A stretch of DNA of 24,146 bases, from positions 1-24,146 of IMG/VR virus record IMGVR_UViG_3300042934_000195; one strand, 5' to 3'. Below, piece after piece: positions 1,184 to 17,257 of this stretch (position 1 is its first letter; each line of letters opens with the position of its first letter). A program made the position numbers and the translations under genes. The stretch comes from a virus. The notes under the pieces were generated by a model. That model had not been told where the DNA came from and made no database searches. It was given only the letters and a program-made list of their open reading frames with translations.

Positions 1184-2164
1184 GTGAATATTAACGAATT
1201 AAATAGATTACAAAATGAAACAGCATTTGAACATAAATTACGATTATGTAAGGCAAAGATAAATAAAGAGACAGATATGGATTGGCAGGAAATTGTAGAT
1301 TTACTTGAATTAGATGTGTCAGCAGACCATCTTAGAAAAACGGCGTATGGAATTATTGAATATGATACATATATTCATGGATTTGATGGAGTTGCTACTA
1401 CTATCCTATCAATTTCTGATTTACATGTACCGTTCCAACTTCCTATTAGCACGTTTAGCGATTATGTTGGCAAAGTGGACATATTTCAAATCAATGGTGA
1501 CGTTGTAGACTGTCAGGCATTATCAAAGTTTCCAAAACAGTATCGTATTTCTCCTATGGAAGAAATGATCCAAGCAAGACAATATCTCATTGATGTAATC
1601 GAATATATTAAGCCTAAAAAGGTTATTGTTAATTATGGTAATCATGATAAAAGATTTGCTGCTTATTTTGCCAAGAATCTTGATACTGATATTTTAGAGT
1701 TATTACCAGATACTTCATTAGAATTAATTCTTGTTGATGGATTTAAGCATTACGATAAAAGAACAAAATCAAAGATTCAATATGAACCATTGTGTAACGT
1801 TTTTGATGATATAGAAATTGAATATGTCGATGATTGGAAATGTAAAATAGGAAATACATGGTTTGTTCATCCTTTGGCTTATAGACAAGGAACATTAGCT
1901 ACTGCTGAACAAGCAATGAATTATCTACATAGAACTGAAAGAGATGCGTTTGACTGTGTTGTAATGGCGCATACTCATGCAGTTGGTGATACTGAAAAAG
2001 GATTTATTAGATTATTTGAGCAAGGTGCTTGTTGTGATGTTAAGAAGATGAATTATATGGATGGTAGATTATCTGCACCTCAAAAAATGGGGTTTGCTTT
2101 AATTTGCCAAAACAAAGATGGTGACTTAATTAAAGAAAAGTCAAAAGTAATTGTTTTAAACTAA
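1184..2164 (+). CDS. Calcineurin-like metallophosphoesterase with N-terminal helical domain
   Basis: A 326-residue phosphoesterase that should use a two-metal centre to cleave a phosphate ester; the substrate is unknown. The family signature is complete: D-x-H at 79-81 (SDLHV), GD at 105-106 (NGDVVD), GNHD at 152-155, a histidine at 229 (WFVHP) and the H-x-H pair at 263 and 265 (MAHTHA). Residues 1-60 form a separate helical, probably DNA-binding, segment. Some phages encode similar enzymes just before the terminase genes, which suggests a role in DNA metabolism or packaging (inference). The GTG start follows GAGAGGA. An in-frame ATT six bases further on cannot be excluded, given the unusual starts elsewhere in this window. 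The next gene follows after 30 bases. Confidence 0.85.
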   Translation: MNINELNRLQNETAFEHKLRLCKAKINKETDMDWQEIVDLLELDVSADHLRKTAYGIIEYDTYIHGFDGVATTILSISDLHVPFQLPISTFSDYVGKVDIFQINGDVVDCQALSKFPKQYRISPMEEMIQARQYLIDVIEYIKPKKVIVNYGNHDKRFAAYFAKNLDTDILELLPDTSLELILVDGFKHYDKRTKSKIQYEPLCNVFDDIEIEYVDDWKCKIGNTWFVHPLAYRQGTLATAEQAMNYLHRTERDAFDCVVMAHTHAVGDTEKGFIRLFEQGACCDVKKMNYMDGRLSAPQKMGFALICQNKDGDLIKEKSKVIVLN

Positions 2165-3490: not shown

Positions 3491-3521
3491 GGTCAGATTA
3501 TGAAAGGTAGGTCAGAAAATG
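3491..3521 (+). promoter_or_regulatory. Start region of HNH gene with two GGTCAGA repeats matching the upstream RNA loop
   Basis: The leader carries GGTCAGA at 3491-3497 and again at 3510-3516. The second copy extends to GGTCAGAAA (3510-3518), which directly abuts the ATG at 3519 and overlaps the ribosome landing zone after AAAGG (3503-3507). The upstream element contains TTTCTGACC (3454-3462), the exact complement. Pairing would block the start; the first copy could compete for the same loop. Confidence 0.4.
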
Positions 3522-4418
3522 GCAGATAAATGGACAGACGATCAATTAACATTATTGAAATCATTATATAAAGATTTTACTAATGAGGAATTAATACAAC
3601 AATATTTTCCGAATAGAACAAATCGGTCGCTAGAATCTATTGCAAGCAAATACAATTTTTCTGGTAAAACAGAAGAAACAATGAAACGAGTTAATAAAAT
3701 TAAAGGTACAAAAACTGCTGAAAAGATCAGAGGAATAAAACGCAGTAAAGATACTAAAGAAAAAATATCTAAAAACAAAAAAGAATACTGGAAAACTCAT
3801 GAAGTTGGTGAACATTTATTACATCCAACAGATGAAACAAGACGAAAAATGAGTAAATCTAAAAAAGCAATTGGAAAATGGAAAGGTAATTCTAACCCTA
3901 GACATATAAATCCGCTAAATGGAGAAATGAATGGTAAATGGAAAGGTGGAATTACTGATTTATATCAAGAGCTAAGAAGTGATACTAAAGACTGGCAAAC
4001 TAACTCAATGGATTTTTGTAAATATAAATGTATTGTTACTGATAAATCATTCGATGAAGTTCATCATTTAATTCCTTTTAAAGATATTATGAAAGAAACA
4101 TTTAATATTCTAAATTTAGATATGAGAAAGAATATGTCTAAATATAAGCAAGATGATGTTGATAGCATTAAAGAAACATTAAAAATATTGCATATCAGTT
4201 ATGGGTATGGAATTTGTTTACGCAAAGATATACATAAATTATTTCATGATAATTATGGATATTTTAATAATACACCATATCAATTTCTTGATTTTGTTTA
4301 TAGATTAGATGTCGGAGAATTTGATAAATGGTTAAAAGAAAATAAATTACAATTATATATTAATTATCAGATTATTGATTATTTAGAAAGCAGTTTATTA
4401 TTACAACAGACTGCTTAA
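3519..4418 (+). CDS. NUMOD/HNH homing endonuclease
   Basis: A 299-residue free-standing homing endonuclease. Residues 4-47 form a SANT/Myb-like DNA-binding domain (starting KWTDDQL). Residues about 55-145 carry repeated basic NUMOD3-like modules (RRKMSKSKK, then two NGKWKGG-like motifs), which bind DNA in extended form. The HNH nuclease lies at about 165-245 with the metal-binding VHHLIPF at 181-187. Such enzymes nick or cut phage DNA at conserved genes and copy themselves into that site. It sits directly before the terminase genes, a common target area. Tandem terminators and a structured leader separate it from upstream transcription, so its expression is probably tightly limited. The family call is firm; the target is unknown. 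Confidence 0.9.
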   Translation: MADKWTDDQLTLLKSLYKDFTNEELIQQYFPNRTNRSLESIASKYNFSGKTEETMKRVNKIKGTKTAEKIRGIKRSKDTKEKISKNKKEYWKTHEVGEHLLHPTDETRRKMSKSKKAIGKWKGNSNPRHINPLNGEMNGKWKGGITDLYQELRSDTKDWQTNSMDFCKYKCIVTDKSFDEVHHLIPFKDIMKETFNILNLDMRKNMSKYKQDDVDSIKETLKILHISYGYGICLRKDIHKLFHDNYGYFNNTPYQFLDFVYRLDVGEFDKWLKENKLQLYINYQIIDYLESSLLLQQTA

Positions 4419-4430
4419 TTTTATTATATG

Positions 4431-4448
4431 AAAGAGGTGAGCACTATC
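4431..4448 (+). promoter_or_regulatory. Ribosome binding site pointing to an ATC start
   Basis: AAAGAGGTGA (4431-4440) is followed after five bases by ATC (4446-4448). The in-frame ATG at 4428 lies before this site and has no purine-rich site of its own upstream, so it cannot be the natural start by ordinary rules. Confidence 0.5.
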
Positions 4449-5498
4449 GCTGGTAAGGCTACAAAACTTGAAACTGTCACTAAAAATGTTAGTGCAAAAA
4501 CTCAAGTAAATAAAGATGTAAAAATCAATATTAAACAACATGATAATACACCTAAAGAATTTAGGTGTACATGCTGTGGTAATACATATTCAAAACAACA
4601 AGGAAACTTTATGCCATCAAACTTTGAGACATTTAAAGGTAATGGTGGATACATTGACACTTGCAAAAAATGCACTGATCAACTTTTTGAATACTTAACG
4701 AATTTTTATATGGGGAACGAAGAAAAAGCGATAGACCATATATGTATGATGTATGGTCTTTATTTTAATGAATCTCCTTTAGCTGCTAGTAAGAAAATAA
4801 GTGCTGATAGGAGTAGATTGTCTACATATTCAAGTAAAATTCAGATTAAACCTTGGATTGGTAAAACTTATTTAAATACCATTACTGAACGCATTGAAGA
4901 AGAAAAAGGAAATGTAATTGAATCATTAGAAGACGTTAAAGATTCAAAGAAAGCAAAATTGAAATCTGTTAAGTTCTTTGGGGTAGGTTTTGATGATGAA
5001 GATTATCCATATCTTGAAGATGAGTATCTCGATTGGACTACTAGACACGAGTGTTCAACTAAAGCACAAGAAGAGGTATTTAAACAAATTTGCTATGCAC
5101 AATTAGATATTTTAAAGGCAAAGAAAAAAGGTCTTCCAACTAAGGATTTAACAAAAACTCTTCAGGATTTATTGGCAACAGCTAATCTCCAACCAAAACA
5201 AACTAAAGAAAATACTCTTGCTGAACAAAACACTTTTGGCACTTTGATTAGAAAATGGGAAAATGAAAAGCCGATTCCTGAACCAGACGAAGAATGGAAA
5301 GATGTAGATGGAATTGTTAAGTATATTACCATTTATTTCTTGGGACATCTTTGTAAAATGATGGGTATAAAGAATTCATATGCGCGAATGTATGAACAGG
5401 AAATGGATAAATACAAAGTAGACAAGCCTGAATACGAAGATGACGATGAAGCACTATTTGATGCTGTGTTTGGTGGTGGTTTAGATGATTCAGACTAA
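4446..5498 (+). CDS. terS: Putative small terminase subunit with zinc ribbon
   Basis: This gene directly precedes the large terminase and overlaps it by 14 bases, so its product is the likely DNA-recognition subunit of the packaging motor. The protein is about 350 residues. A zinc ribbon with C-x2-C at about residues 41-44 and C-x2-C at 73-76 leads into a helical region. The middle is charged and helical, and the C-terminus is acidic. Starting at ATC gives MAGKATKLETV, a natural-looking phage N-terminus; the alternative is the ATG at 4428 (six residues more, no ribosome binding site). The small terminase role comes mainly from position, because this family is very diverse. Confidence 0.6.
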   Translation: MAGKATKLETVTKNVSAKTQVNKDVKINIKQHDNTPKEFRCTCCGNTYSKQQGNFMPSNFETFKGNGGYIDTCKKCTDQLFEYLTNFYMGNEEKAIDHICMMYGLYFNESPLAASKKISADRSRLSTYSSKIQIKPWIGKTYLNTITERIEEEKGNVIESLEDVKDSKKAKLKSVKFFGVGFDDEDYPYLEDEYLDWTTRHECSTKAQEEVFKQICYAQLDILKAKKKGLPTKDLTKTLQDLLATANLQPKQTKENTLAEQNTFGTLIRKWENEKPIPEPDEEWKDVDGIVKYITIYFLGHLCKMMGIKNSYARMYEQEMDKYKVDKPEYEDDDEALFDAVFGGGLDDSD

Positions 5499-7233
5499 TA
5501 AAAAAACAGAAAAAGAAGTAGCTAATGATAAAGCAAGTAAAATAATGGACGGAGTAGCTACTTGGTGTAGTTTCTATCGTTCTAATCCTCATAGATTTGC
5601 AAAAGATTATTTGGGAATTACATTAAAATTATTTCAAATGATACTTTTATATATGATGAATGCTAGTAATTACTTTATGTACTTAGCTGCTCGTGGACAA
5701 GGTAAGACGTGGTTAACTGCTGTATTTTGTGTAACCAGATGCATTTTATATCCGGGTACAAAAATATGTGTCGGTTCAAAAAATCGTAATCAAGCGAATG
5801 AAGTTTTAGAAAAAATAACCACAGATTTAATGATTAATTCAGATAATTTAAGAATGGAAATAAGTGATTATTCAGTTGGTCAAAATAAAGCATATATAGA
5901 ATTTAGAAACGGATCTTGGATAAAAGTTATAACGGCTTCAGATTCAGGTAGAAGTGCTAGAGCGAATGTCTTGATTACTGACGAATTTCGTATGGTTGAC
6001 AAAAATATCATTAATACTGTTTTAAGAAAATTTCTAACAGCTCCAAGAAATCCAAAATATTTAAATAAAAAAGAATATAAACATTTAGCTGAAAGAAATA
6101 AAGAAATTTATATGTCAAGTTGTTGGTTTAAAAGTCACTGGAGTTTTGAAAAGGCAAAAGCATATTGTGCTAATTTGGTTAATGACGCTAAAAAATATTT
6201 TATTTGTGGTTTGCCATATCAAATATCAATAAAAGAAGGTCTATTGTCAAAAGAACAAGTTGAAGATGAAATGTCAGAAGCGGATTTTAGTGAAATGGCA
6301 TGGGATATGGAAATGGGTTGCTTGTGGTATGGCGATACTGATGGAGCATTTTTCTCATACGAAGATGTTTCAAAACAAAGAACTTTAAAAACAGCAGTTT
6401 ATCCACCATCTAGCTTATCTGATAAAAAATTTAAAATTCCTGATTTAGCCATCGGAGAAAAACGTATTCTTTCAGTTGACGTTGCTTTATTAGCATCTAA
6501 AAAACAAAATAATGATGCGGCATCTATATTTATTAACAGTTCTTTACCAACAAAAAGTAATAAGTATATAGGAAACCTAATTTATGCTGAAAATCACGAG
6601 GGGTTACATACGAGTGAATTAGCTTTAATTGTGCGAAGATTGTTTGAACAATTTAAATGTACAGAAATTGCATTAGATGTCAAGGGAATAGGTTTAGGAA
6701 TTTACGATGCGCTTTGTCGTGATATACCAGACCCTATAAATGGAGCAATATACCCACCATTAAGTTGTTGCAACGATCAAGTATATGCTGATAGGTGTAT
6801 TGATAAAAAAGCACCAAAAGTTATATGGGCAATTCAAGCTACAGCACAGTTTAATAACGATATGTATTTAATGCTTAGAGATGGATTCAAACAAGGATAT
6901 TTAAACATATTGGTTAATGAATTTGAAGCAGACGAAATTTTAAAGGACATCAGAGGATATAATTCTATGAGTTCATCAGATAAGACAAAATTACAGTTAC
7001 CATATATACAAACTACTCTTCTAGTTAATGAATTAATAAATCTTGAATATGAAACAAAGGGAGTAAATATTAAAGTGTTTGAGAAATCTGGTATGAGAAA
7101 AGACCGTGTTTCAAGTATTGGATACAATTATTGGGTTCAATGTCAGTTGGAAAGAAAGTTTAAACCAAAACAATCGAACTTTGACCCGACTACAATGATC
7201 CAATTCCGTCAACCACAGATTCGCAAATACTAA
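5485..7233 (+). CDS. terL: Terminase large subunit
   Basis: The 582-residue ATPase/nuclease motor that cuts and pumps phage DNA into empty heads. The ATPase domain shows Walker A at about 69-76 (AARGQGKT) and Walker B with the catalytic glutamate at about 162-167 (VLITDE). The C-terminal RNase H-like nuclease domain shows acidic residues in LSVDVAL (D332) and IALDVKG (D398), as in the family. Length is normal and the frame is intact, with no intron or intein. The ATG lies inside the end of the previous gene behind a GGTGGTGG stretch, implying coupled translation. The stop is followed by the TAATAATAAT motif seen after several genes here. Confidence 0.93.
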   Translation: MIQTNKKTEKEVANDKASKIMDGVATWCSFYRSNPHRFAKDYLGITLKLFQMILLYMMNASNYFMYLAARGQGKTWLTAVFCVTRCILYPGTKICVGSKNRNQANEVLEKITTDLMINSDNLRMEISDYSVGQNKAYIEFRNGSWIKVITASDSGRSARANVLITDEFRMVDKNIINTVLRKFLTAPRNPKYLNKKEYKHLAERNKEIYMSSCWFKSHWSFEKAKAYCANLVNDAKKYFICGLPYQISIKEGLLSKEQVEDEMSEADFSEMAWDMEMGCLWYGDTDGAFFSYEDVSKQRTLKTAVYPPSSLSDKKFKIPDLAIGEKRILSVDVALLASKKQNNDAASIFINSSLPTKSNKYIGNLIYAENHEGLHTSELALIVRRLFEQFKCTEIALDVKGIGLGIYDALCRDIPDPINGAIYPPLSCCNDQVYADRCIDKKAPKVIWAIQATAQFNNDMYLMLRDGFKQGYLNILVNEFEADEILKDIRGYNSMSSSDKTKLQLPYIQTTLLVNELINLEYETKGVNIKVFEKSGMRKDRVSSIGYNYWVQCQLERKFKPKQSNFDPTTMIQFRQPQIRKY

Positions 7234-7283
7234 TAATAATATACAATAAGACATATAAAAAAATAAAAAGAAAGGAGGTTATC

Positions 7284-8807
7284 ATGGACAATCAAGAAGT
7301 TAACAATTCTAAAACACTTGAACAGCAAGCTTTAGAAAAATATGCTCAACTAGCATTTGCAAATATTAAGAAAAGTATGGTTCAAGATTTAGTTAATAAT
7401 CGTAATGAAAGTGTTATATATAAACGCTATCCAATTGAACGGGTGGTTACTATGTTGGAAAAACCACAGTCATTTGAGAAAGAGTTACGAGAAATGAGTA
7501 ATTTCTTATACATAACAAGTAGTCACTACCGTAGATTAATGGATTACTATGCAAAATTGCCAACATATAATCATATCGTTGTTCCAACTAATCTTCCTAA
7601 AAAGATTAATACAAAAACATACAAGGATACATATTACAAAGTTATTGCTCAGATAGAAAAATATAATTTGAAACACGAGTTGCCTAAAATATTACTATCT
7701 GCATTTGTCGAAGGTGTATTTTATGGATTGGAATATGAGACATCAGATTCTTATTACATTAAACCTTTTAATAGTAATTTTGCAGAGATATCTTCTATCG
7801 AGGATGGATGTTACTCTTTTTCTATTGATTTAAACTATTTTACTGGTAAAGAACATTTATTCCCTGCTTATGGAAAAGAAATAGAAAATGCTTACTATGC
7901 TTATAAGGGTTATTCTAAGAAAAAGATAAAAGGGAATACAAATTTACGTTGGTTTGAACCATCAAACGGAATATGTATTAAGGCGGATGAAAATAACCCA
8001 TTATTTAGTACTCCTGTATACTGTTCTATTTTCTTAGATTTAATAAGGCTGGAGGATTATAAACTACTTAAAAAAGCAAAGACTGAAATCGATAATTATA
8101 AAGTTCTTGCATTAAAAATGGAAGTTGACGATGACGGTGTCCCTAAAATGGATTTCGACATGGCAATGAAATATTATAATCAAGCAGCTGGTAATCTTCC
8201 ATCTGGAATTGGATTGATTCTTTCTCCGTTTGTTATATCGGATTTTTCATTTCAGAAGTCATCTTCTGCCGACACAGATGCCGTTAATGAAGCCGAAGAA
8301 GAATTTTGGTCTAGTTCAGGAACAAGTGGAATGTTATTTGGTAGTGCTAAAGCATCAAGTTCTTCTAGTTTAACTTTGTCAACAAAACCCGATGAACAAA
8401 TAGCTTTCAGTATACTTACGCAAATTGCTAGAAACATAAATAGAAAAATAAAGAAAATGAATTTGCCATATACATTTGAATTAAAGTTTTTGGATCAATC
8501 AATTTTTAATGTTGATGAGTATTCGAATAGAATGCTTAAAGCGTCACAATATGGAGTTTCTGGTTCAAAATTATTATATGCCGCTTCATTAGGTATGACG
8601 CCTAGCGATGTTGTTAATTTTAGTTATCTTGAAAACGACATTTTAAAGGTAACAAATGAAATGTTCACAAGTCCATTAATAAGTTCAAATACAATTTCTC
8701 GTTCAGAGGATAACGTTGGTGGCGCATCAACACAAGAAGAAAAAGGACAAACCGTTTCTGACAATACAGAAAAAAGTCGTGAACAAAATGGAAATAACGA
8801 AAATTAA
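7284..8807 (+). CDS. Portal protein
   Basis: A 507-residue protein that should form the dodecameric ring at one head vertex through which DNA passes. Position directly after the large terminase and before the protease, the length and the overall make-up fit phage portals. The N-terminal clip/wing region is mixed alpha/beta. A central serine-rich loop (about residues 325-370) probably corresponds to the flexible tunnel loop, and the C-terminus is an Asn/Gln/Glu-rich tail. A perfect AAAGGAGGT site stands before the ATG. No classical motif exists for this family, so the call rests on context and general resemblance. Confidence 0.82.
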   Translation: MDNQEVNNSKTLEQQALEKYAQLAFANIKKSMVQDLVNNRNESVIYKRYPIERVVTMLEKPQSFEKELREMSNFLYITSSHYRRLMDYYAKLPTYNHIVVPTNLPKKINTKTYKDTYYKVIAQIEKYNLKHELPKILLSAFVEGVFYGLEYETSDSYYIKPFNSNFAEISSIEDGCYSFSIDLNYFTGKEHLFPAYGKEIENAYYAYKGYSKKKIKGNTNLRWFEPSNGICIKADENNPLFSTPVYCSIFLDLIRLEDYKLLKKAKTEIDNYKVLALKMEVDDDGVPKMDFDMAMKYYNQAAGNLPSGIGLILSPFVISDFSFQKSSSADTDAVNEAEEEFWSSSGTSGMLFGSAKASSSSSLTLSTKPDEQIAFSILTQIARNINRKIKKMNLPYTFELKFLDQSIFNVDEYSNRMLKASQYGVSGSKLLYAASLGMTPSDVVNFSYLENDILKVTNEMFTSPLISSNTISRSEDNVGGASTQEEKGQTVSDNTEKSREQNGNNEN

Positions 8808-8819
8808 GGAGATGATAAA

Positions 8820-9020
8820 ATGATTTTAAATGTAATTGACGAAGAATTAAAAGACACTCTCCTTTCAAAAAGTTATAAGTTAATCAACACAATTGAAGAT
8901 ATTCACAAGAAAAAGATTTGGTTATTTGAATATAATCCAAGTCTTTTTTGTTTGGATATAAATGATGAAGAAATAAAGCAAAAGTGCTTCTTTTCTGACG
9001 CTTTAAAAATGACTTTTTGA
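8820..9020 (+). CDS. Small hypothetical protein between portal and protease
   Basis: A 66-residue protein that I do not recognise. It starts 12 bases after the portal gene with AAGGAGATGATAAA before the ATG, and ends with TGA at 9018-9020, just before the ribosome binding site of the protease gene. It is charged with alternating hydrophobic residues and has no membrane segment. Tight packing on both sides and a strong ribosome binding site support a real, translationally coupled gene. Confidence 0.6.
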   Translation: MILNVIDEELKDTLLSKSYKLINTIEDIHKKKIWLFEYNPSLFCLDINDEEIKQKCFFSDALKMTF

Positions 9021-9034
9021 GAAAGGAGGTAAGC

Positions 9035-10327
9035 ATGAAAAATAAGAAAATTAAAGTGGATTTTGAAATGAAATTTTCAGACGTAGTTGACTTAAATAAA
9101 AGTTTTGCAAAAGCAAAATGTTTAATTGCATACACAGGAAGAAATAGAAATTATTCTGATATTTCAAAAGATGTATTTTTAAATGCATTGCCATCAATCA
9201 AAAATATTCCGATTGTTGCTAGGTATGATGACGAAAAAGACGATTTTGGTGGACACGATATTCGAATTGTTGAAACTGAAAATGGAATTAGTATAGCAAA
9301 CGCTACAGTTCCTTTTGGCGTTGTCCCTGAAAGTGCAAATCAATGGTTTGAAGAATTAATATTGCAAAATGGTGAAAAGAAAGAATGCTTATTTACTGAT
9401 GTAATCTTATGGAAGAGACAGTATGGTTATGAACACATTGTAAAGGCAGAAAAAATTTCACAGTCAATGGAGATTAATGTTTCATCATACATCGTTGATT
9501 CAGATGGTTATTATGTGGTTGAAAAAATGGAATTTGAAGCATTAACACTATTGGGAGAAAATGTTGAGCCTTGTTTTGAAAACGCAAATTTACAATTATA
9601 TTCTAAGGATTATTTGAGTGAATTTAAACAGCAATATTCAAATATGTTGCAAGAATTTAAGCTATTGAATCAATCTTCTACTACAGAAGTTGAGATAAAT
9701 AATTTAAGTAAAGGAGGTACTGAAATGGATGACAATAAGGAAATCGTTATTGAAGAAACTACGAAAGAAGTAGCAGAAACAATAATCGAAGAACCTGTTG
9801 TTGAAACTGTAGAAGTTGAAGAAGTTGCTATCGAGACACTTATTGAAAGTGTTGAGACAGTTACAGAAGAAACAATTGAGAATAATATTACACAAGAAGA
9901 TATTGTTGAAGAAGCTACTACTGATTTCAGCCAAGAATTAAAAGATTTACAGAGTCAGTATGACAATCTTTTAAAAGAATTTAATGAATATAAGGAAAAC
10001 TATTCAACTTCCAAAGCAGATGTTGATGAATTAATCACATATAAAAACAAGAAAATGGAAGAAGAAAGAAAAGCCAATGAAGATATTATATTCGATAAAT
10101 TCGAAGAAAGAATTGGAAATACAACAGAGTTTTCAGAGCTAAAGGCTAATTCTAAAAATTATACATTAGCTGAACTTGAAAAAGAATGTATTTACATTGT
10201 TGGATTACATACTGAATATGCAAAAGAAACAAAGAAACAAGAAAACTTAAAGTTCTCTGTAGAAAAAGAAACAGATGAAACTAAAGAAGTTTATGGCGAC
10301 CTATTTAAAAAGTATAAGAAAGATTAG
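9035..10327 (+). CDS. Prohead protease fused to scaffold protein
   Basis: The 430-residue product has two parts. Residues 1-220 resemble phage prohead serine proteases of the herpesvirus-assemblin type: a histidine in FGGHD (H74) and a serine in ISQSMEI (S142 or S144) are the likely catalytic residues. From about 231 the sequence becomes very acidic (many Glu, Val and Thr) and then coiled coil, typical of a scaffolding domain. The protease removes scaffold during head maturation. A strong internal ribosome binding site and in-frame ATG at 9725 should also produce the scaffold alone. I start at the ATG at 9035 behind AAAGGAGGT; the longer frame from a TTG at 9017 contains that site. It lies directly before the decoration and capsid genes, as in many siphoviruses. 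Confidence 0.82.
   Translation: MKNKKIKVDFEMKFSDVVDLNKSFAKAKCLIAYTGRNRNYSDISKDVFLNALPSIKNIPIVARYDDEKDDFGGHDIRIVETENGISIANATVPFGVVPESANQWFEELILQNGEKKECLFTDVILWKRQYGYEHIVKAEKISQSMEINVSSYIVDSDGYYVVEKMEFEALTLLGENVEPCFENANLQLYSKDYLSEFKQQYSNMLQEFKLLNQSSTTEVEINNLSKGGTEMDDNKEIVIEETTKEVAETIIEEPVVETVEVEEVAIETLIESVETVTEETIENNITQEDIVEEATTDFSQELKDLQSQYDNLLKEFNEYKENYSTSKADVDELITYKNKKMEEERKANEDIIFDKFEERIGNTTEFSELKANSKNYTLAELEKECIYIVGLHTEYAKETKKQENLKFSVEKETDETKEVYGDLFKKYKKD
9710..9727 (+). promoter_or_regulatory. Internal ribosome binding site and start for nested scaffold
   Basis: A perfect AAAGGAGGT (9710-9718), six bases of spacing, then ATG (9725-9727), in the same frame as the surrounding protease gene. 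It encodes KGGTEM at the domain junction. Confidence 0.75.
9725..10327 (+). CDS. Nested scaffolding protein (internal in-frame start)
   Basis: A separate 200-residue scaffold is predicted from the internal start within the protease gene. It begins MDDNKEIVIEE and consists of an acidic low-complexity segment (to about residue 70), a coiled coil (about 75-125) and a basic-acidic helical C-terminus ending KKYKKD, fitting a rod-like scaffold that binds capsid protein through a charged tail. The arrangement matches phage lambda, where Nu3 is translated from within gene C. The independent product would give many free scaffolds per protease molecule. The start signal is directly seen; the stoichiometry is inferred. 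Confidence 0.72.
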   Translation: MDDNKEIVIEETTKEVAETIIEEPVVETVEVEEVAIETLIESVETVTEETIENNITQEDIVEEATTDFSQELKDLQSQYDNLLKEFNEYKENYSTSKADVDELITYKNKKMEEERKANEDIIFDKFEERIGNTTEFSELKANSKNYTLAELEKECIYIVGLHTEYAKETKKQENLKFSVEKETDETKEVYGDLFKKYKKD

Positions 10328-10339
10328 GAGGAATTTAAA

Positions 10340-10825
10340 ATGGCAAAAACTATCGTGAGAATTGACAATTGTTCATTCACAAAAAACCCAGCACTTATTA
10401 AGAGTGGCAGATATTATGTTAGTACTACAGCTACAGCAATCGAAAACGGACGTGTCGTAGCAATCGGAGACTTAGAAACAGGTGAAAGAGAAATTCACAA
10501 AACAGCAGCACCTACTGCAACTACAACTTATTTCGGTCTTGTTTGTACTCCAGAAGTTATGTACGACGAAAAGAAACAAATGGATGAATTTGAAAATGCT
10601 GCTGGTGCAGTATCAAGAGTTGGTATTTTACAAAAAGGTGATATCTTCTCAGCTACAGTAGAAGCTTTTGACACAACTCCTACTGTTGGTAAATTAGTAG
10701 AGTTAGCCGCAGCTACAACTTTAAAAGTTGTTACTACTGCTACTGCTGGATCAACTCAGGTTGGAAAAGTTATTGCAATTGACACTGTTGGAACAAAAAC
10801 TCTCTACGTTGTAGAAGTACAGTAA
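10340..10825 (+). CDS. Putative capsid decoration protein
   Basis: This 161-residue protein is rich in Ala, Thr and Val and poor in charge, with alternating patterns that indicate mostly beta structure. It lies just before the major capsid gene behind AGGAGG. Position and composition match head decoration or stabilisation proteins, which bind the outside of the expanded shell. Codon use is more regular, with more C-ending codons, than in its neighbours, as for the capsid gene, suggesting high expression. No catalytic motif is visible. A run of TAA codons follows the end. Confidence 0.65.
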   Translation: MAKTIVRIDNCSFTKNPALIKSGRYYVSTTATAIENGRVVAIGDLETGEREIHKTAAPTATTTYFGLVCTPEVMYDEKKQMDEFENAAGAVSRVGILQKGDIFSATVEAFDTTPTVGKLVELAAATTLKVVTTATAGSTQVGKVIAIDTVGTKTLYVVEVQ

Positions 10826-10838
10826 TAATAATAAACAT
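10823..10838 (+). repeat. Stop-associated TAATAATAAACAT motif (best copy)
   Basis: The stop codon of the decoration gene runs into TAATAATAATAAACAT. Similar sequences stand at or just after the stop codons of six other genes: 2164-2178, 2798-2814, 3326-3335, 7231-7254, 11847-11866 and 16344-16354. Shared features are two or more TAA repeats and a nearby ACAT. No other feature explains them. Confidence 0.55.
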
Positions 10839-10856
10839 TGAAAGTGAGGTACAATA

Positions 10857-11849
10857 ATGAACGACGTTATTAAATTAGCTATTGATAGCTATAAAGGTAA
10901 AATCGCAGGAAACTACTCTGTTTCTGATTCTATGGAAGTGTTAAAACAAGCTTTAATCGAAGCAAACAATGGTTCTACTACTCTTGATTTTAGAGCAGTT
11001 AGAGATGGTGACTGTAAAAAGTTATTTGCAATTATGGAAGAAATCGTAACAAAAACTGTAGTAGAAGGTCTTCCAGAGTCATCTCCTATTTTCAACTTTG
11101 TTGACTATAGAAATAAAGCACTTGGAGACCAAGATTCTTTCGTAGTACAGGATGCTTCTTTATTCGCAGTTGCAGATATCGCTGAAGGCACTCAGGGCGT
11201 AAGAAGACAGCGTTTAGTTGGCGGTGAAACTGTATATGTTACTCCACAGCTAAAGGCTATCAAAGTTTACGAAGAACTTAACAGAGTTCTTTCAGGAAGA
11301 ATTGATATCAATGAAATGATTGCAAGAGTATCTAAATCATTCTTATTAAAGATTGGAGAAGATATTTATACTGCATTCGCTGGTACATATAGCAAATTAG
11401 TTGCACCATATCAGGTAAGTGGTAGCTTCACAGAAGCAAACCTTACTACTTTGATTGACCATGTTGAAAGTGCAACTGGAATGAGAGCTTATATTTTAGG
11501 TTCAAAACAGGCAGTTAAGAAAATTACTGGTATTACTGGTATTGATGCTGATTCTGCAAAAGAAGACCTATATGCAATGGGATATGTTGGACATGTTGGT
11601 AACAACCCTGTAATTGCTATGCAGAATGGACATAAAGCTGGAACTACAAACTTTATCTTAAATGATACTGACTTATTTGTAGTTGCTGGTGATGATAAAT
11701 TTATCAAATTCGTTACTGAAGGAGATACATTAATCATTCCTGGAGATCCAATGAGCAATGCCGACTTAACTCAGGAATTCTTAATGGCTCAGAGATATAA
11801 TGTTGCTGTAGTTATGTCTCAGGTATTCGGTATCTACAGAATCGGATAA
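10857..11849 (+). CDS. Major capsid protein
   Basis: A 330-residue protein that should form the icosahedral shell with an HK97-like fold. Supporting features are its place after protease/scaffold and decoration genes, typical length, and the family-like layout: an N-terminal helical arm, a central region with the EELNRVLSG helix, an A-domain-like segment, and the C-terminal beta stretch ending in GIYRIG. Codon use is the most regular in the window, as expected for the most abundant product. The ATG follows GAAAGTGAGG. The stop is followed by a TAA-rich motif and then a strong hairpin that lacks a T run. No cleavage site can be named with confidence. Confidence 0.88.
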   Translation: MNDVIKLAIDSYKGKIAGNYSVSDSMEVLKQALIEANNGSTTLDFRAVRDGDCKKLFAIMEEIVTKTVVEGLPESSPIFNFVDYRNKALGDQDSFVVQDASLFAVADIAEGTQGVRRQRLVGGETVYVTPQLKAIKVYEELNRVLSGRIDINEMIARVSKSFLLKIGEDIYTAFAGTYSKLVAPYQVSGSFTEANLTTLIDHVESATGMRAYILGSKQAVKKITGITGIDADSAKEDLYAMGYVGHVGNNPVIAMQNGHKAGTTNFILNDTDLFVVAGDDKFIKFVTEGDTLIIPGDPMSNADLTQEFLMAQRYNVAVVMSQVFGIYRIG

Positions 11850-11864
11850 TAAATAATATTAAAC

Positions 11865-11894
11865 ATTGTGGGTGGATTTATTTCCACTCACAAT
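11865..11894 (+). other. Stable intercistronic hairpin after the capsid gene
   Basis: ATTGTGGGTGGA (11865-11876) pairs over twelve bases, one of them G-U, with TCCACTCACAAT (11883-11894) around a six-base loop. No T run follows, so it is not an ordinary terminator. It could protect the 3' end of the capsid message or be a processing site (inference). Confidence 0.55.
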
Positions 11895-11917
11895 TAGAAT
11901 GAAAGGGGATTTTTATA

Positions 11918-12553
11918 ATGGCATATAGCAAAGAACAAAGAGAACAAAAACGTCTTGAAGAAGGGGCTAAGCTTAGAGCAGAACTTGAAGAAAAAATCAG
12001 AAAAGAACTTGAAGAAAAAATGAAATCACAATCTTCACCTTCTAATACAATAAACGAAGAAAAATTAGCTGTTAAAAAGAATAAGAAGAAAATTCCATTA
12101 GATACACTTGTTCCATGTAAAAGTGGAGTGCAAGGAGAACTTATATATGTGTCTAAAAAAATTAATGGTTATCAGATTGAGTGGGATTCATATGGTTCAG
12201 TTGAATACATTGAACTTAGCGAATTGCTATCTATGAGAAATACTAGCCGTAGTTTTTATGTAAACAATTGGATTTTCTTTGAAGACACTGATGAATATAC
12301 CGCTTTAGATTTTTATAATTTTCTTGAAGTTTCTAAATTCTATGAAAATACAATTCTTGGAGATGATCTAGATGAAATATTTTCAAAATCACCAGAAGAA
12401 ATCAAGGAAATTTGTTCAAAATTATCAAGAGGTGTAAAAGACACCGTTGCTGCCAAGGCTAAAGCTTTAATCGATTCTAAAGAACTTGATTCTACTAATA
12501 GAATTAATGCATTAGAAAACGTTCTTGGTGTTGAACTAAATCCTTCATTTTAG
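11918..12553 (+). CDS. Hypothetical head-region protein with N-terminal coiled coil
   Basis: I do not recognise this 211-residue protein. Residues 1-40 are a highly charged coiled coil (repeats of KEQREQKR, LEEKIRKELEEK). Residues about 60-105 look like a small beta domain, and the C-terminal half is helical. It stands between the major capsid gene and the connector genes with a strong AAAGGGG site, so a minor head or connector role is likely. Nothing indicates an enzyme. Confidence 0.55.
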   Translation: MAYSKEQREQKRLEEGAKLRAELEEKIRKELEEKMKSQSSPSNTINEEKLAVKKNKKKIPLDTLVPCKSGVQGELIYVSKKINGYQIEWDSYGSVEYIELSELLSMRNTSRSFYVNNWIFFEDTDEYTALDFYNFLEVSKFYENTILGDDLDEIFSKSPEEIKEICSKLSRGVKDTVAAKAKALIDSKELDSTNRINALENVLGVELNPSF

Positions 12554-12563
12554 GAGGTAATAT

Positions 12564-12995
12564 ATGACTGAATATAAAGTTATATTTGATAAATTCAAAG
12601 ACAAAATTACTGATCCTGATTTGCTCTTATATGTTGAAGCTATTCAACAAGAAATATTAACAAGCCTTTTATCTAGTGCCTGTACTAAATTTAAACGTTT
12701 ATGTAAACAGAATCTTTCTGATAGAGATGACACTCTGATGATATTTAATTTTGACGTTGATGATGAAGTTATTGATATATTGACAGATATTATGGCTGAA
12801 TATTGGCTTAAACCTTATTTAAACAACATTGAAAACTTAAGAAATCAATTAAGCACAAAAGATTTCTCGGTCTTCTCTCCTGCTAATCTGCTTAATGCAG
12901 TACAAAATACTTATGACTTAGGCAGAAAACGAGCAAAATCAGCCATGAATGAATATTCATTTATCAACGGTGATTGGGATAGGTTGCGACTATGA
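12564..12995 (+). CDS. Putative head-tail connector (adaptor) protein
   Basis: A mostly helical 143-residue protein. Gene order (after capsid, before stopper and tail terminator), size and all-helical content match the adaptor ring that binds the portal from below, as in HK97 gp6-like proteins. There is no motif to prove it. AGGAGGTAATAT precedes the ATG, and the last bases overlap the next gene by four (ATGA), indicating translational coupling. Confidence 0.6.
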   Translation: MTEYKVIFDKFKDKITDPDLLLYVEAIQQEILTSLLSSACTKFKRLCKQNLSDRDDTLMIFNFDVDDEVIDILTDIMAEYWLKPYLNNIENLRNQLSTKDFSVFSPANLLNAVQNTYDLGRKRAKSAMNEYSFINGDWDRLRL

Positions 12996-13321
12996 TAGAA
13001 GTAAAATATGGACTATTACCAAATGAAAGTTTTTGTAGATATTTTGATTTTTTAATTAATAAGACATATAAAATACTACCACTAAAGGAAGAATGTTCTG
13101 AAACACTTATTGATTATCTTGAAAGTTTTCAAAGAGAATTGATTGGGAATAAAGAATTGGTGTCTATTTTAAAGGATGAACCGCAATTCGTATCTGTGTT
13201 AAATACGATGCAGTACCTAATAGATAACGAATATTCTGTTAAGATATGCAAGAAAGAAGTATTTAAATCTATCAGAATATTAAAGGATATTAATAAAAAA
13301 TATTTTATAGAAAGGAAGTGA
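12992..13321 (+). CDS. Hypothetical neck-region protein
   Basis: A 109-residue protein, mainly helical, not recognised. It overlaps the connector gene by four bases and is followed after four bases by the next gene, so it belongs to the neck operon and is probably translated by coupling; its own ribosome binding site is weak. A role in head completion is inferred from position only. Confidence 0.5.
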   Translation: MIEVKYGLLPNESFCRYFDFLINKTYKILPLKEECSETLIDYLESFQRELIGNKELVSILKDEPQFVSVLNTMQYLIDNEYSVKICKKEVFKSIRILKDINKKYFIERK

Positions 13322-13325
13322 TTTT

Positions 13326-14309
13326 GTGGATAAATATACAGCACGTATCAATCTTATGGGTTCTACCAAAAGAGAACGTGACTTAAATAGATTAAAGCAA
13401 ACAATATTAAACGATGCTCCACAGACACTTTCTTGTAAAGATGTAAAAATAGGTGATGTTGATAGAAAATTAATAATTAACGAATCTACCATTCCATATA
13501 AAAAAGACTTGATAACACTACCAAATGAAAATATTCTTGTTGGAGACTATGTTATTTGGGAAAATGAAACTTGGTTGGCAATTGAAGCAGATTCAGATGA
13601 TGAAATATATACTACAGGTAAAATGCAACTTTGCAACTATAATCTTAAATGGCAAGATTCAACAGGTACTATTCTATCCTATCCATGTATAGATGAAACA
13701 ACATTGTCTGTCGGGTTAGATGAAGGAAATGTAATCACAACTCCAAATTCAACACACAAGATAAAATTACCCTTTGATTCAAATACTGTGTTACTAAATA
13801 CAGATAAAAGATTTATGATTGATGATTCCACTGTTGAAGTTCCGCAAGTATTTGTAATAAGTAATCCAAATCGTACAGAATTTAAATATGGAGACAAAGG
13901 TATTATTGAGTTAACCATGAAAGCTGATAATTATAATGCATTAACAGATAATATTGCACTTGGAGTTTGTAACTACTTCTCTCCTACTACTCCACCTGAA
14001 CCTTCGCCAATTAATTATACCATGACAATTACGCATGATATGGATTTAATAGTAAATAACACTTTATGGTGTACGTTTACTCCTACATTAAAAGACGAGA
14101 ATGGTGCTGTTGTAACAAGTTGGACTGCAAATTGGAGTTTTAATTATAATGGCATGGACGAAAGTAAATTTATTATTGAATATGACGGTAACGACTGTAA
14201 AGTTAAAGTTGTGGATGAAAGTTATGATGTAGTTGATAATGTGTTAGGATTAACTTGCACAAGCGATAATGGAACTATTGGTAATTATAATATTGTTATT
14301 GGAATGTAG
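13326..14309 (+). CDS. Head closure/stopper-like protein with C-terminal Ig-like domain
   Basis: A 327-residue protein. The N-terminal part (to about 125) has a beta-rich segment with VGDYVIWENETWLAIEADS, the kind of sequence seen in small head-closure (stopper) proteins. It is longer than the usual stopper (about 110 residues). Residues about 225-327, after a Pro-rich linker (SPTTPPEPSP), look like an immunoglobulin-like beta domain that could be displayed on the neck to bind host or mucus glycans (inference). The GTG start follows AAAGGAAGTG. The stop codon overlaps the ribosome binding site of the next gene. Confidence 0.6.
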   Translation: MDKYTARINLMGSTKRERDLNRLKQTILNDAPQTLSCKDVKIGDVDRKLIINESTIPYKKDLITLPNENILVGDYVIWENETWLAIEADSDDEIYTTGKMQLCNYNLKWQDSTGTILSYPCIDETTLSVGLDEGNVITTPNSTHKIKLPFDSNTVLLNTDKRFMIDDSTVEVPQVFVISNPNRTEFKYGDKGIIELTMKADNYNALTDNIALGVCNYFSPTTPPEPSPINYTMTITHDMDLIVNNTLWCTFTPTLKDENGAVVTSWTANWSFNYNGMDESKFIIEYDGNDCKVKVVDESYDVVDNVLGLTCTSDNGTIGNYNIVIGM

Positions 14310-14323
14310 GAGGTGGTAATACG
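14308..14323 (+). promoter_or_regulatory. Ribosome binding site pointing to an ACG start
   Basis: AGGAGGTGG (14308-14316) is followed after four bases by ACG (14321-14323). The first in-frame ATG is at 14360 and has no ribosome binding site, leaving this strong site without a canonical start. Confidence 0.5.
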
Positions 14324-14785
14324 GTTATTTCTGACGTTATAGAGTATAAATCAAAGATTATGAACAAGTTAATTAGTATTGCAGATGTCTATACATTGAT
14401 TAACAATCCAAATATTACACTGCCATCACAGATGAAAAATAATAATATATATTCTTATCTGAAAATACCAAATAGTACATTACAAGTAAAAAATTACATA
14501 TGTTTTGATTTTAGTAGCAGAAAATCTCCTGTTAATAGCACTTTTAAAAATGTAAATATTAATGTAAGTATTATTTGTCATGAAACAGATTTAAAGACAT
14601 CTTGGGGAAATAGGCATGATGTGTTAAGTGGTGTAATTATAGATGCATTTAATTGGTCTAATTTTCTAGGTTTTGAATTAGAGTTAGTGTCGGATAATGA
14701 AAAAATTTTAGAGAACGATTATCATATGAGAACATTACAATTTAATAATTTAACTACTGATAATTTTATAAATAAGGTGAATTAA
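14321..14785 (+). CDS. Putative tail terminator (tail completion) protein
   Basis: About 154 residues if translation starts at ACG (VISDVIEYKSKI after the initiator), or 141 from the ATG at 14360. The longer form starts like a tail-completion protein and uses a perfect AGGAGGTGG site, so I prefer it. Tail terminators cap the tube and bind the stopper. Position after the stopper and before the tail tube, the length and the alpha/beta make-up fit. The TAA stop overlaps the next ATG by one base, so the two are coupled. Confidence 0.55.
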   Translation, partial: TVISDVIEYKSKIMNKLISIADVYTLINNPNITLPSQMKNNNIYSYLKIPNSTLQVKNYICFDFSSRKSPVNSTFKNVNINVSIICHETDLKTSWGNRHDVLSGVIIDAFNWSNFLGFELELVSDNEKILENDYHMRTLQFNNLTTDNFINKVN

Positions 14786-15516
14786 TGAATATTGATACTT
14801 TAACAATATATAGAGGTGGAGATTTTTATATAAATGATAAAATTAGTATTCATCAACCAACATTGGGTGAGATATGCGATTTCGGAGAAAATAAATATTT
14901 CTCAATAATATATTTAGTTACTTCTATCCCATCAGATATGAAATCATTTCTATTTGATAATGGTATTGATTATGAAAAGTTTTCGGATTTTGAATTGTTT
15001 ATCTTATTAACTAAATCACTTTCAGTTAAAGATACTGCTATTATTTTTGGTAATTTAGATTTTACAAATTTTGAATGTGGTATAAACGAAGAAAATGAAG
15101 AATTAGTAATGTATGATGTCAAAAATGACATAATAATTGACAGATATATTTATAAAATTATCTTTGATTACCTAACAAAAACACATGGAATAAAAAAGAA
15201 AGTTGAATTGGCTGGTAATGAGTTTACGAAACGATTTTTAATTGATGAAGATAGAGAGAAAAACAATAAAAAAGAAGATAAACAATTTAGTTCAATTTTA
15301 TTACCATTAATATCTGCAATGGTAAACTGTGAAGGATTTAAATATAATCACGCTCAAGTTTGGGACATGAAAATTAATGCATTTATGGATAGCGTTCGTA
15401 GAATACAAAAAATAAAAGACGCTAACAACACAATTAATGGTGTATATAGTGGTAAATTAGATGGAACTAAAATAAATAAAAAAGAATTAGATTGGTTAGG
15501 AGAACTTGAAACATAG
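14785..15516 (+). CDS. Conserved-looking phage protein before the tail tube, unknown role
   Basis: A 243-residue protein with a beta-rich N-terminus containing IHQPTLGEI (about residues 23-31) and a long, mainly helical remainder with an internal charged linker (DREKNNKKEDK). I recall similar proteins in structural modules of Clostridia phages but cannot name a function. Place between the tail terminator and tail tube genes suggests a tail assembly or neck role (inference). Translation is coupled to the previous gene by a TAATG overlap. Confidence 0.5.
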   Translation: MNIDTLTIYRGGDFYINDKISIHQPTLGEICDFGENKYFSIIYLVTSIPSDMKSFLFDNGIDYEKFSDFELFILLTKSLSVKDTAIIFGNLDFTNFECGINEENEELVMYDVKNDIIIDRYIYKIIFDYLTKTHGIKKKVELAGNEFTKRFLIDEDREKNNKKEDKQFSSILLPLISAMVNCEGFKYNHAQVWDMKINAFMDSVRRIQKIKDANNTINGVYSGKLDGTKINKKELDWLGELET

Positions 15517-15563
15517 TTCTTATTTTTATGTCCAATTTTAATAAAAAATAAGGAGGAACAAAA

Positions 15564-16346
15564 ATGGCTTTTGATATTAATAATTTTATAATCGACCGTC
15601 CAATTAGGGCAATTATGTCATCTTCTGATACCGGAGATGTATTGTGGTCTATAAACCAGATTGAAGACCCAAGTATATCATGTGCTTCTGAAGCAACACA
15701 AGCAGTAGATATGTTAGGTTCTCCTATCATGGAATTTGAAAGAGCAAAAACAGCAACTTTCTCAGCAACAAATTCATTATTTGACCTTGGGCTTGCGGCT
15801 GCACAATTTGGAACTACTAAAAAGGTTGCAAATGCATCAAATAAAGTAACAGCTCCGAAGTTTGAAACTTTAGATGTAGATGGTACTACTGTTACATTGT
15901 CACAGACTCCGACTGCTGATATTACAGCAATTTATGTTTTAAAAGGTGATAATACACTCGGAACTAAATATGTTGCAGGTGCTACTGCATCCGCTACAGA
16001 ATTTGTTTATGATGACGTAACAAAAACTATTACACTTCCTACTTCAGTTACAAGCGGTAAAGTATTTGTAAAATATGAATATGAAACTGAAAATGCAGTA
16101 GAAGTGGTAAATACAGCTGTTAATTTCCCAACAGCAGGACAGCTTGTAGTTGAAGTATTAGGATGTGATGTATGTAATAAATCAGTATTATATTATGCAT
16201 ATCTAATTTTCCCTGCGGCTAAATTAAGTTCTTCTGTAGACTTAACATTTACAACCGAAGGTAAACATCCTTTCGAAATTTCATGTTTCCAAGATTATTG
16301 TGATTACGAAAAACGATTATTTAGTATCGTAATTCCACAAGCATAA
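15564..16346 (+). CDS. Major tail tube protein
   Basis: A 260-residue, beta-rich protein with low charge and many Ala, Thr and Val, typical of tube subunits that stack as hexamer rings. Residues about 95-160 form a Thr/Val-rich insertion (around TVTLSQTPTADITAIYV) that may be an extra surface domain. Position after the tail terminator and well before the tape measure gene, an AAGGAGG site, and regular codon use for an abundant product all support the call. The stop is followed by TAATAATACAT and a hairpin. Confidence 0.75.
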   Translation: MAFDINNFIIDRPIRAIMSSSDTGDVLWSINQIEDPSISCASEATQAVDMLGSPIMEFERAKTATFSATNSLFDLGLAAAQFGTTKKVANASNKVTAPKFETLDVDGTTVTLSQTPTADITAIYVLKGDNTLGTKYVAGATASATEFVYDDVTKTITLPTSVTSGKVFVKYEYETENAVEVVNTAVNFPTAGQLVVEVLGCDVCNKSVLYYAYLIFPAAKLSSSVDLTFTTEGKHPFEISCFQDYCDYEKRLFSIVIPQA

Positions 16347-16359
16347 TAATACATAATTT

Positions 16360-16387
16360 GAGGAGTGTGTATTTTTACATGCTCCTC
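16360..16387 (+). terminator. Hairpin after tail tube gene, weak terminator or attenuator
   Basis: GAGGAGTGTG (16360-16369) pairs with CATGCTCCTC (16378-16387), including two G-U pairs, followed only by TTTATATT. The short T run suggests partial termination, lowering expression of downstream genes relative to the tube. Confidence 0.5.
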
Positions 16388-16408
16388 TTTATATTAGGAG
16401 TGATATTT

Positions 16409-16735
16409 ATGCCACAGTCAAATAGAGAATGTAAAATATGTGGTGAACCATATTACTATTGCCAATCATGTCAAAAACTAGAATCATTTGAATCTTGGAG
16501 ATTATATGGTCATGACATAAACTGTTATAAAATATTTATGATTTTAAGAGATGATTTTCTTAAAAATACATCCAGAGAAGAAACAATTAGTCTATTAAAT
16601 AATTGCGATTTATCTAATTTAGAAAATTTTAACGATAATATCAAAACACAAATAAAAGATATATTGTCAACTAAAAAGACAAATATTATTAATAAGAAAA
16701 ACAAAAATAAAATAGTGAATAGTATAAATACATAG
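16409..16735 (+). CDS. Small zinc-ribbon protein
   Basis: A 108-residue protein with C-x2-C (CKIC, about residues 8-11) and a second C-x2-C (CQSC, about 18-21), a treble-clef or zinc-ribbon pattern, then a helical part and a lysine/asparagine-rich basic tail. A role in nucleic-acid binding or in tail gene expression is possible but unproven. I use the ATG at 16409 with AGGAG upstream; an earlier in-frame start falls inside the preceding hairpin. A strong terminator follows at once. Confidence 0.65.
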   Translation: MPQSNRECKICGEPYYYCQSCQKLESFESWRLYGHDINCYKIFMILRDDFLKNTSREETISLLNNCDLSNLENFNDNIKTQIKDILSTKKTNIINKKNKNKIVNSINT

Positions 16736-16784
16736 AGGACATATCTCACTATTATATTTGATGGTGCGGTATGTCCTTTTTTTT
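16736..16784 (+). terminator. Strong intrinsic terminator
   Basis: AGGACATATC (16736-16745) pairs with GGTATGTCCT (16768-16777) around a 22-base loop that can form a further small stem. Eight T residues run from 16777 to 16784. Confidence 0.8.
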
Positions 16785-16806
16785 ACTAATTTTATTTAAT
16801 AATTTT

Positions 16807-16825
16807 GAAAGGTGGAATTTATATA
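16807..16825 (+). promoter_or_regulatory. Ribosome binding site pointing to an ATA (or ATT) start
   Basis: GAAAGGTGG (16807-16815) stands seven bases before ATA (16823-16825). ATT at 16817 is the only nearer in-frame candidate. The TTG at 16805 precedes the site, and the first in-frame ATG is about 20 codons downstream. Confidence 0.5.
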
Positions 16826-17035
16826 AAAATTAAATCAAGAATTACAGGAGAATTATACGAGGGCGATGACTCGGTGTTTCTTATGAATACCCTACAGGCT
16901 GGTATGTACATAAAAAATAAAGGAAGGTTATTAGATTGTTTTTGGCACGACATTAGAAACTCATTATGTTTTGTTTTTGATAGGGATGAAACTACTCCAC
17001 TTTATGATGCATGGTGTAAACACGAATTAAAATAA
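16823..17035 (+). CDS. Small hypothetical protein, non-canonical start
   Basis: About 70 residues. The sequence reads KIKSRITGELYEGDDSV after the initiator. I recall similar small phage proteins beginning close to this point, with a short beta-rich N-terminus, a helix and a C-terminal WCKHEL-like end; no function is known to me. The start is set by the GAAAGGTGG site and by the lack of any canonical codon at proper distance. It follows a strong terminator, so it needs its own promoter or antitermination. Confidence 0.5.
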   Translation: MKIKSRITGELYEGDDSVFLMNTLQAGMYIKNKGRLLDCFWHDIRNSLCFVFDRDETTPLYDAWCKHELK

Positions 17036-17060
17036 AAGATAACTTTTATCAAGAAAGGCC

Positions 17061-17074
17061 AGGTGATTTTTATT
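17061..17074 (+). promoter_or_regulatory. Ribosome binding site pointing to an ATT start
   Basis: AGGTGA (17061-17066) is followed after five T residues by ATT (17072-17074) and CCA. In FmdB-like zinc ribbons the start Met is followed directly by Pro, matching ATT-CCA. GTG at 17063 overlaps the site but has AAAGG four bases upstream as an alternative. Confidence 0.55.
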
Positions 17075-17257
17075 CCATCATATGTATATCATTGCAATTT
17101 CTGTAATGTAGATGAAACTATTGAAAGAAAAATGAGTGAATATAAACCTGTTGAAAATTGTTTAGTTTGTGGTAAACAGATGAATAGAAAAGTTGAAGAT
17201 ATTCTTCCTCAGAATTATATAGTAAACTGTGTGGGATTTTACGGTAAGAAGTCTTAA
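17072..17257 (+). CDS. FmdB-like small zinc-ribbon protein, ATT start
   Basis: About 61 residues. The pattern PSYVYHCNFCN, then CLVCGK about 25 residues later, is a C-x2-C...C-x2-C zinc ribbon like those of FmdB-type proteins (typical start MPxYxYxCxxC). Aligning the family start with this sequence puts the initiator at ATT 17072. The alternative GTG at 17063 adds three hydrophobic residues that the family lacks. The biochemical role is unknown; regulation of nucleic-acid processes is usually supposed. It lies 36 bases after the previous small gene, and its stop lies in the first of three tandem hairpins. Confidence 0.6.
   Translation: MPSYVYHCNFCNVDETIERKMSEYKPVENCLVCGKQMNRKVEDILPQNYIVNCVGFYGKKS

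What the first reader, a model, noticed from the sequence alone, without database searches (positions are those of the whole stretch)
4446..17074. Four phage genes appear to start at ATC, ACG, ATA/ATT and ATT
Seen: strong ribosome binding sites at 4431-4440, 14308-14316, 16807-16815 and 17061-17066 each stand 4-7 bases before a codon one change away from ATG (ATC 4446, ACG 14321, ATA 16823, ATT 17072). Canonical starts in those frames either precede the site, overlap it or lie far downstream without a site. Known: FmdB-like zinc ribbons begin Met-Pro, which fits ATT-CCA at 17072; such codons initiate weakly in bacteria and are screened by IF3. Inference: about one gene in eight uses a weak start, and the affected products (small terminase, tail terminator, small zinc proteins) are low-copy, so this may set stoichiometry. 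An undescribed initiation bias or a phage or host factor relaxing start choice is possible.
Basis: partly seen in the sequence, partly recalled or inferred. Interest (0 to 1): 0.72.

Follow-up and report, generated by a model that had tools for sequence, protein, structure and literature searches.

The report
Weak start codons in SPbeta-like phages
A phage of anaerobic bacteria really does start several of its genes at codons that differ from the normal start signal, and its whole family of SPbeta-like phages does the same for about one gene in thirty, most likely to keep some enzymes and packaging proteins scarce.

Summary
At 4446, 14321, 16823 and 17072 a strong Shine-Dalgarno (SD) site stands at normal spacing before ATC, ACG, ATA and ATT. 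Homologues start at the same aligned positions: small terminase ATC, ATA, TTG, GTG or ATG; the 14321 gene TTG or ATG; the 16823 gene ATC or ATA, with no in-frame canonical codon upstream; the zinc-ribbon ATA. A fifth site, ATT at 1190, is probable.

The window is an SPbeta-like phage of Lachnospiraceae (Anaerocolumna). Across 11 SPbeta-like records, 72 of 156 genes with an SD but no matching canonical start carry ATA/ATC/ATT/ACG/CTG there, against 17 expected. Virulent phages (4 of 43) and two hosts (5 of 38) show no excess. Homologues of near-cognate-start genes are 69% non-ATG, against 17% for ATG-start genes, so weak starts look retained by selection.

Best reading: ordinary SD-driven initiation by the host's normal initiator tRNA at weak codons, lowering output of low-copy proteins. 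Nothing supports a relaxing host or phage factor. Single cases are known (infC, ccpN, annotated SPbeta genes); I found no description of the family-wide use. No protein-level proof exists.

The parts
4446..5498 (+). Small-terminase-like gene (SPbeta YonG homologue, phrog_3314) starting at ATC 4446
   Evidence: SD AAAGAGGTGAG at 4431-4441; homologues start at the same site with ATC (81% identical), ATA, TTG, GTG or ATG
4431..4440 (+). Shine-Dalgarno site of the ATC start; contains GTG 4437
   Evidence: -14.4 kcal, start 9 nt after the last G
14321..14785 (+). Gene starting at ACG (between the 13326 gene and the tail-like gene; function inferred from position only)
   Evidence: No in-frame canonical codon upstream; homologues start TTG (66% identical) and ATG (61%) at the same codon
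14308..14316 (+). Shine-Dalgarno site AGGAGGTGG of the ACG start
   Evidence: -19.4 kcal, start 8 nt after the last G
16823..17035 (+). Small gene (70 aa, phrog_31036-like at E 0.003) starting at ATA
   Evidence: Homologues start ATC (68%) and ATA (47%); neither has an in-frame canonical codon upstream
16807..16815 (+). Shine-Dalgarno site GAAAGGTGG of the ATA start, overlapped by TTG 16805
   Evidence: -10.7 kcal
17072..17257 (+). Zn-ribbon (Zn_ribbon_8/FmdB-like) gene, 61 aa, starting at ATT
   Evidence: Homologue starts ATA-CCA (79% identical); Pfam PF09723 E 2.7e-5 but below the curated cut-off
17061..17066 (+). Shine-Dalgarno site AGGTGA of the ATT start; contains GTG 17063
   Evidence: -14.1 kcal, start 9 nt after the last G
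1190..2164 (+). Probable fifth case: metallophosphoesterase gene starting at ATT 1190 rather than GTG 1184
   Evidence: SD AGAGAGGATGA from 1173 on is 8 nt from ATT but about 2 nt from GTG; in L002 (62% identical over 261 aa) the same SD is followed by an in-frame TGA and then ATT/ATA, so GTG cannot be used there

Best explanation
The four codons (and probably ATT 1190) are true translation starts. A strong Shine-Dalgarno helix places the 30S subunit, and the ordinary CAU initiator tRNA initiates inefficiently on AUU/AUC/AUA or ACG. This works as a fixed translational damper on products needed in small amounts, inside operons that also carry high-output genes. It is a trait of SPbeta-like phages rather than of their hosts, and start weakness is retained gene by gene. 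Shown here: the sites, their conservation, the enrichment and the gene-specific retention. Inferred: that initiation occurs in vivo, its efficiency (about 10% of AUG by analogy with S. aureus AUA/AUU sites), and that dosage is what is selected.
For: Homologue starts align at the same positions and swap among ATC, ATA, ATT, TTG and ATG. SPbeta-like records: 72 near-cognate of 156 SD-orphan genes against 17 expected; pooled virulent phages, hosts and small temperate phages 13 of 94, Fisher P 1e-7. 38 of the 72 have no canonical codon back to the in-frame stop, 22 none within 60 nt downstream either. Homologue sites of near-cognate genes: 21 near-cognate and 17 TTG/GTG of 55, against 36 and 62 of 593 for ATG genes. 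SPBc2 is already annotated with ATT (youA, yorM, yoqL, bnrdI) and CTG (yomF, yoqK) starts. Affected genes are mostly enzymes and packaging or small proteins. S. aureus AUU/AUA starts with extended SDs were mapped by Ribo-Ret and gave about 10%, up to 30%, of AUG reporter output (PMC13009471).
Against: No protein-level or ribosome-profiling data for any of these phages. About a quarter of the 72 calls are expected by chance. Homologue sites are not phylogenetically independent and some pairs are counted both ways. SD energies of near-cognate genes are only slightly stronger than those of canonical genes, and the selection rule biases that comparison. Some homologues (DUF1064 gene, 14321 gene) use ATG, so dosage control is not universal.
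Confidence: 0.78

Rival explanations
1. Translation starts at the nearby canonical codons (GTG 4437 or ATG 4428, ATG 14360, TTG 16805, GTG 17063); the near-cognate codons are internal or leader positions.
For: In-frame canonical codons exist upstream for three of the four genes and downstream for the fourth.
Against: They lie in or before the SD, or remove conserved N-terminal residues. Homologues of the 16823 gene (L028/L029, G002) have no canonical codon upstream at all, and in G001 the small terminase has an in-frame stop just before the SD with only a TTG adjoining it. A GTG 9 nt upstream is simply part of AGGTGA-type SDs: 22 of the 72 near-cognate sites have a canonical codon exactly there.
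Confidence: 0.08
2. A phage or host factor relaxes start selection (altered IF3, altered initiator tRNA or a phage protein), so these genes form an inducible set.
For: The excess is strong in SPbeta-like phages and includes ACG, which IF3 normally rejects (IF3 role from general knowledge). PhiSepi-HH3, phi36 and the distant TR-TP2 show no significant excess, so it varies by lineage.
Against: Host genomes show no excess. Host infC retains its AUU start. The MAG holding the window's sequence has the standard GGG...CCC/CAU initiator stem. No IF3 domain in the phage records searched; ARAGORN found only Thr and Ser tRNAs in G001, G002, G005 and L039. A protein without known homology is not excluded.
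Confidence: 0.07
3. Relaxed constraint: the near-cognate starts are used, but start codons drift from AUG because initiation is SD-dominated, with no selection for low output.
For: TTG is also frequent in SPBc2, and some homologues have ATG where others have near-cognate codons.
Against: Weakness is gene-specific: 69% non-ATG in homologues of near-cognate genes against 17% for ATG genes, and changes among ATA/ATC/ATT without return to ATG are common.
Confidence: 0.15
4. Sequencing or assembly errors, or decaying prophage genes.
For: Metagenomic source.
Against: The same codons are in separate assemblies, reading frames are intact, and near-cognate starts are found in the isolate records SPBc2, phi3T and phiCDIF1296T.
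Confidence: 0.02

Closest known systems
infC (IF3) AUU/AUA start, E. coli pcnB AUU, S. aureus/B. subtilis ccpN and S. aureus cvfC1 (PMC13009471)
   Same: Near-cognate AUH codon, behind a strong or extended SD in the S. aureus cases; conserved across species; low output shown for ccpN, cvfC1 and citZ
   Different: Four sites reported in a whole S. aureus genome, against several per phage here; ACG also used; no autoregulation known here
SPbeta (Bacillus phage SPBc2, NC_001884) genes annotated with ATT or CTG starts (youA, yorM, yoqL, bnrdI, yomF, yoqK)
   Same: Same phage family, same kind of site; youA and yorM ATT starts shared with phi3T
   Different: Isolated annotation choices; mostly different genes; CTG rather than ACG; no family-wide analysis found

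Membership tests
Near-cognate (AUH/ACG) translation start | Strong SD at normal spacing before a non-AUG/GUG/UUG codon | tested here: met
Near-cognate (AUH/ACG) translation start | Homologues start at the same aligned position | tested here: met
Near-cognate (AUH/ACG) translation start | No usable canonical start in frame | tested here: met
   Upstream none for the ACG gene and for homologues of the ATA gene; in the window the other canonical codons lie in or before the SD
Near-cognate (AUH/ACG) translation start | Initiation there in vivo, with output below AUG | not testable with these tools
   Needs N-terminal mass spectrometry, profiling or reporters
SPbeta-like phage | Terminase genes related to yonF and yonG | tested here: met
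   Large terminase 50% identical to SPbeta YonF over 95% of the query, small terminase 37% to YonG
SPbeta-like phage | Whole-genome synteny, arbitrium and MrpR lysogeny module | not tested
   The window record is a 24 kb fragment
Relaxed-initiation host or phage factor | Genome-wide excess of near-cognate starts in the host | tested here: not met
   2 of 18 and 3 of 20 SD-orphans, as expected by chance; the window's own host species was not scanned
Relaxed-initiation host or phage factor | Altered initiator tRNA, or phage IF3 or initiator tRNA | tested here: not met
   for MAG G012 the exact tRNA pattern was not found, which says little

The most novel reading that the evidence does not exclude
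SPbeta-like phages carry a coordinated set of AUH/ACG-start genes whose translation rises when initiation fidelity is lowered during induction, through an unknown phage protein or a changed IF3-to-ribosome ratio, giving a translational regulon.
Probability: 0.07. Interest if true: 0.85.

Novelty: new variant of a known kind. Interest (0 to 1): 0.55.

Why it matters
If true, standard gene callers misplace or drop starts in several percent of the genes of a large, common phage family: the GTG inside an AGGTGA-type SD is a ready false start. Near-cognate codons would be a routine way for phages to set protein ratios inside operons, where one base sets the dose. SPbeta and phi3T are tractable B. 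subtilis phages, so the role of start-codon weakness and IF3 discrimination in a phage life cycle becomes directly testable.

Tried and rejected
Megablast of the window against the phage collection: no match; the family was found through tblastn of the terminases. Host-wide relaxation rejected from two host genomes, 400 kb each. Phage IF3 and initiator tRNA sought and not found. RNA families in the window: none. Enrichment in the late module: weak, 15 of 122 against 30 of 490 genes, P 0.03, partly driven by the window itself, so not relied on. Stronger SDs as compensation: not claimed, because the selection rule biases it. Literature: phrase searches on phage near-cognate starts gave nothing specific; the library lacks most subscription papers, and the SPbeta genome paper did not turn up in it.

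Full report
The finding and its check. The four sites exist as described. Each SD is strong and, by the spacing distribution of ATG genes in these phages, correctly placed for the near-cognate codon rather than for the nearby canonical codons. The canonical alternatives are GTG 4437 and GTG 17063, which are part of the SD itself, TTG 16805 and ATG 4428, which precede it, and ATG 14360, which would remove 13 codons, several of them conserved in the two homologues.

What the window is. The large and small terminases are 50% and 37% identical to SPbeta YonF and YonG. A MAG assigned to Anaerocolumna (Lachnospiraceae) carries the large terminase at 100% identity, with all four near-cognate starts unchanged, and further relatives lie in Konateibacter, Clostridium sp. 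HBUAS56010 and a second Anaerocolumna MAG. The window is therefore a 24 kb fragment, mostly late genes, of an SPbeta-like temperate phage.

Homologues. Small terminase: ATC in the window, L001, L037 and the 140 kb relative G001 (81% identical; an in-frame TGA stands just before the SD there); ATA in L002, L039 and L003; TTG in L004-L008, L038 and L041; GTG in L009; ATG in L010-L014. The 14321 gene: ACG here, TTG in G002, ATG in G001. The 16823 gene: ATA here, ATC in G002, ATA in L028 and L029 (47% identical), the homologues having no canonical codon back to the in-frame stop. The zinc-ribbon gene: ATT here, ATA-CCA in G002. A fifth case, ATT 1190, is probable: in L002 the same SD is followed by an in-frame TGA and then ATT/ATA, so a GTG start cannot work there.

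Unbiased test. I wrote a gene finder (dicodon scores) and an SD energy scan. For each genome I listed genes whose best SD (at most -8 kcal, at least 3 kcal better than any canonical start) has no in-frame ATG, GTG or TTG 3-16 nt downstream, and read the codon at the preferred spacing. Near-cognate codons (ATA, ATC, ATT, ACG, CTG; about 10% of codons in these regions) were found in: window 4 of 5, G002 6 of 10, G001 11 of 19, G005 9 of 21, G006 5 of 11, G009 17 of 31, SPBc2 5 of 15, phi3T 6 of 17, phiCDIF1296T 7 of 19, PhiSepi-HH3 2 of 7, phi36 (50 kb) 0 of 1. Together 72 of 156 against 17.1 expected. Controls: T4 3 of 24, SPO1 0 of 11, Staphylococcus phage K 1 of 8, Konateibacter 2 of 18, HBUAS56010 3 of 20. 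Small temperate phages gave 4 of 13 (A118 2, phiC2 2, phi11 and TP901-1 none), so the trait may not be confined to SPbeta relatives. SPBc2 and phi3T share genes, so the counts are not fully independent. Of the 72, 38 have no canonical codon upstream and 22 none nearby at all.

Selection. Homologue start sites of near-cognate genes were near-cognate in 21 and TTG/GTG in 17 of 55, against 36 and 62 of 593 for ATG genes. Start weakness is thus a property of particular genes that persists while the codon itself changes, which argues for selection on low output over random drift. Relatedness was not corrected for.

Which genes. Small terminase, DNA polymerase III alpha (ACG), DnaB-like helicase, ATP-dependent DNA ligase, DNA adenine methyltransferase, metallophosphoesterase-type exonuclease, beta-CASP nuclease, Lar-type restriction alleviation protein, a small zinc-ribbon protein. 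The window's portal, capsid-like and tail-like genes (7284, 10857, 15564) use ATG. This fits a dosage role; it is an inference.

Mechanism. In S. aureus, AUU and AUA starts behind extended SDs were mapped by Ribo-Ret and gave about 10%, up to 30%, of AUG output (PMC13009471). The same mechanism suffices here. A relaxing factor is not needed: hosts show no excess, Anaerocolumna infC starts at ATT after GGAGGTG, consistent with intact IF3 autoregulation as known from E. coli, the initiator tRNA stem is standard in three of four host genomes, and no phage IF3 domain or initiator tRNA was found.

Known or new. Individual near-cognate starts are established, and SPBc2 was annotated with ATT and CTG starts. 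I found no description of systematic use across the family, but the library available lacks most subscription papers. Verdict: a real feature, a new variant of a known kind, with no protein-level proof yet.

Noticed in passing
SPbeta-like records: A canonical codon, mostly GTG or TTG, lies exactly 9 nt upstream inside the SD in 22 of 72 near-cognate sites; gene callers could pick it as a false start.
   Followed up: partly
L045:1261: Host infC of an Anaerocolumna MAG starts at ATT after GGAGGTG (ISDLMINEQIRDKEI); Konateibacter infC appears to do the same.
   Followed up: yes
L065:3049 (-) and window 14297-14320: Identical 24-base leader TATTGGAATGTAGGAGGTGGTAAT precedes an ATA-start structural-type gene in L065 and the ACG-start gene in the window: different genes joined to the same SD.
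   Followed up: no
C. difficile phage phiC2 position 2039; Listeria phage A118 position 27645: Likely ATT starts behind strong SDs in small temperate phages that are not SPbeta-like, so the trait may be wider.
   Followed up: no
window 98-754: Reading frame that looks like a LAGLIDADG-type homing endonuclease or intein fragment at the window edge (judged by eye).
   Followed up: no
window 3519-4418: HNH endonuclease gene (PF13391, just under cut-off) directly upstream of the small terminase, possibly a free-standing homing gene.
   Followed up: no
G009 (L178-L183): Highest rate in the set: 17 near-cognate of 31 SD-orphans, 11 of them ATA.
   Followed up: partly
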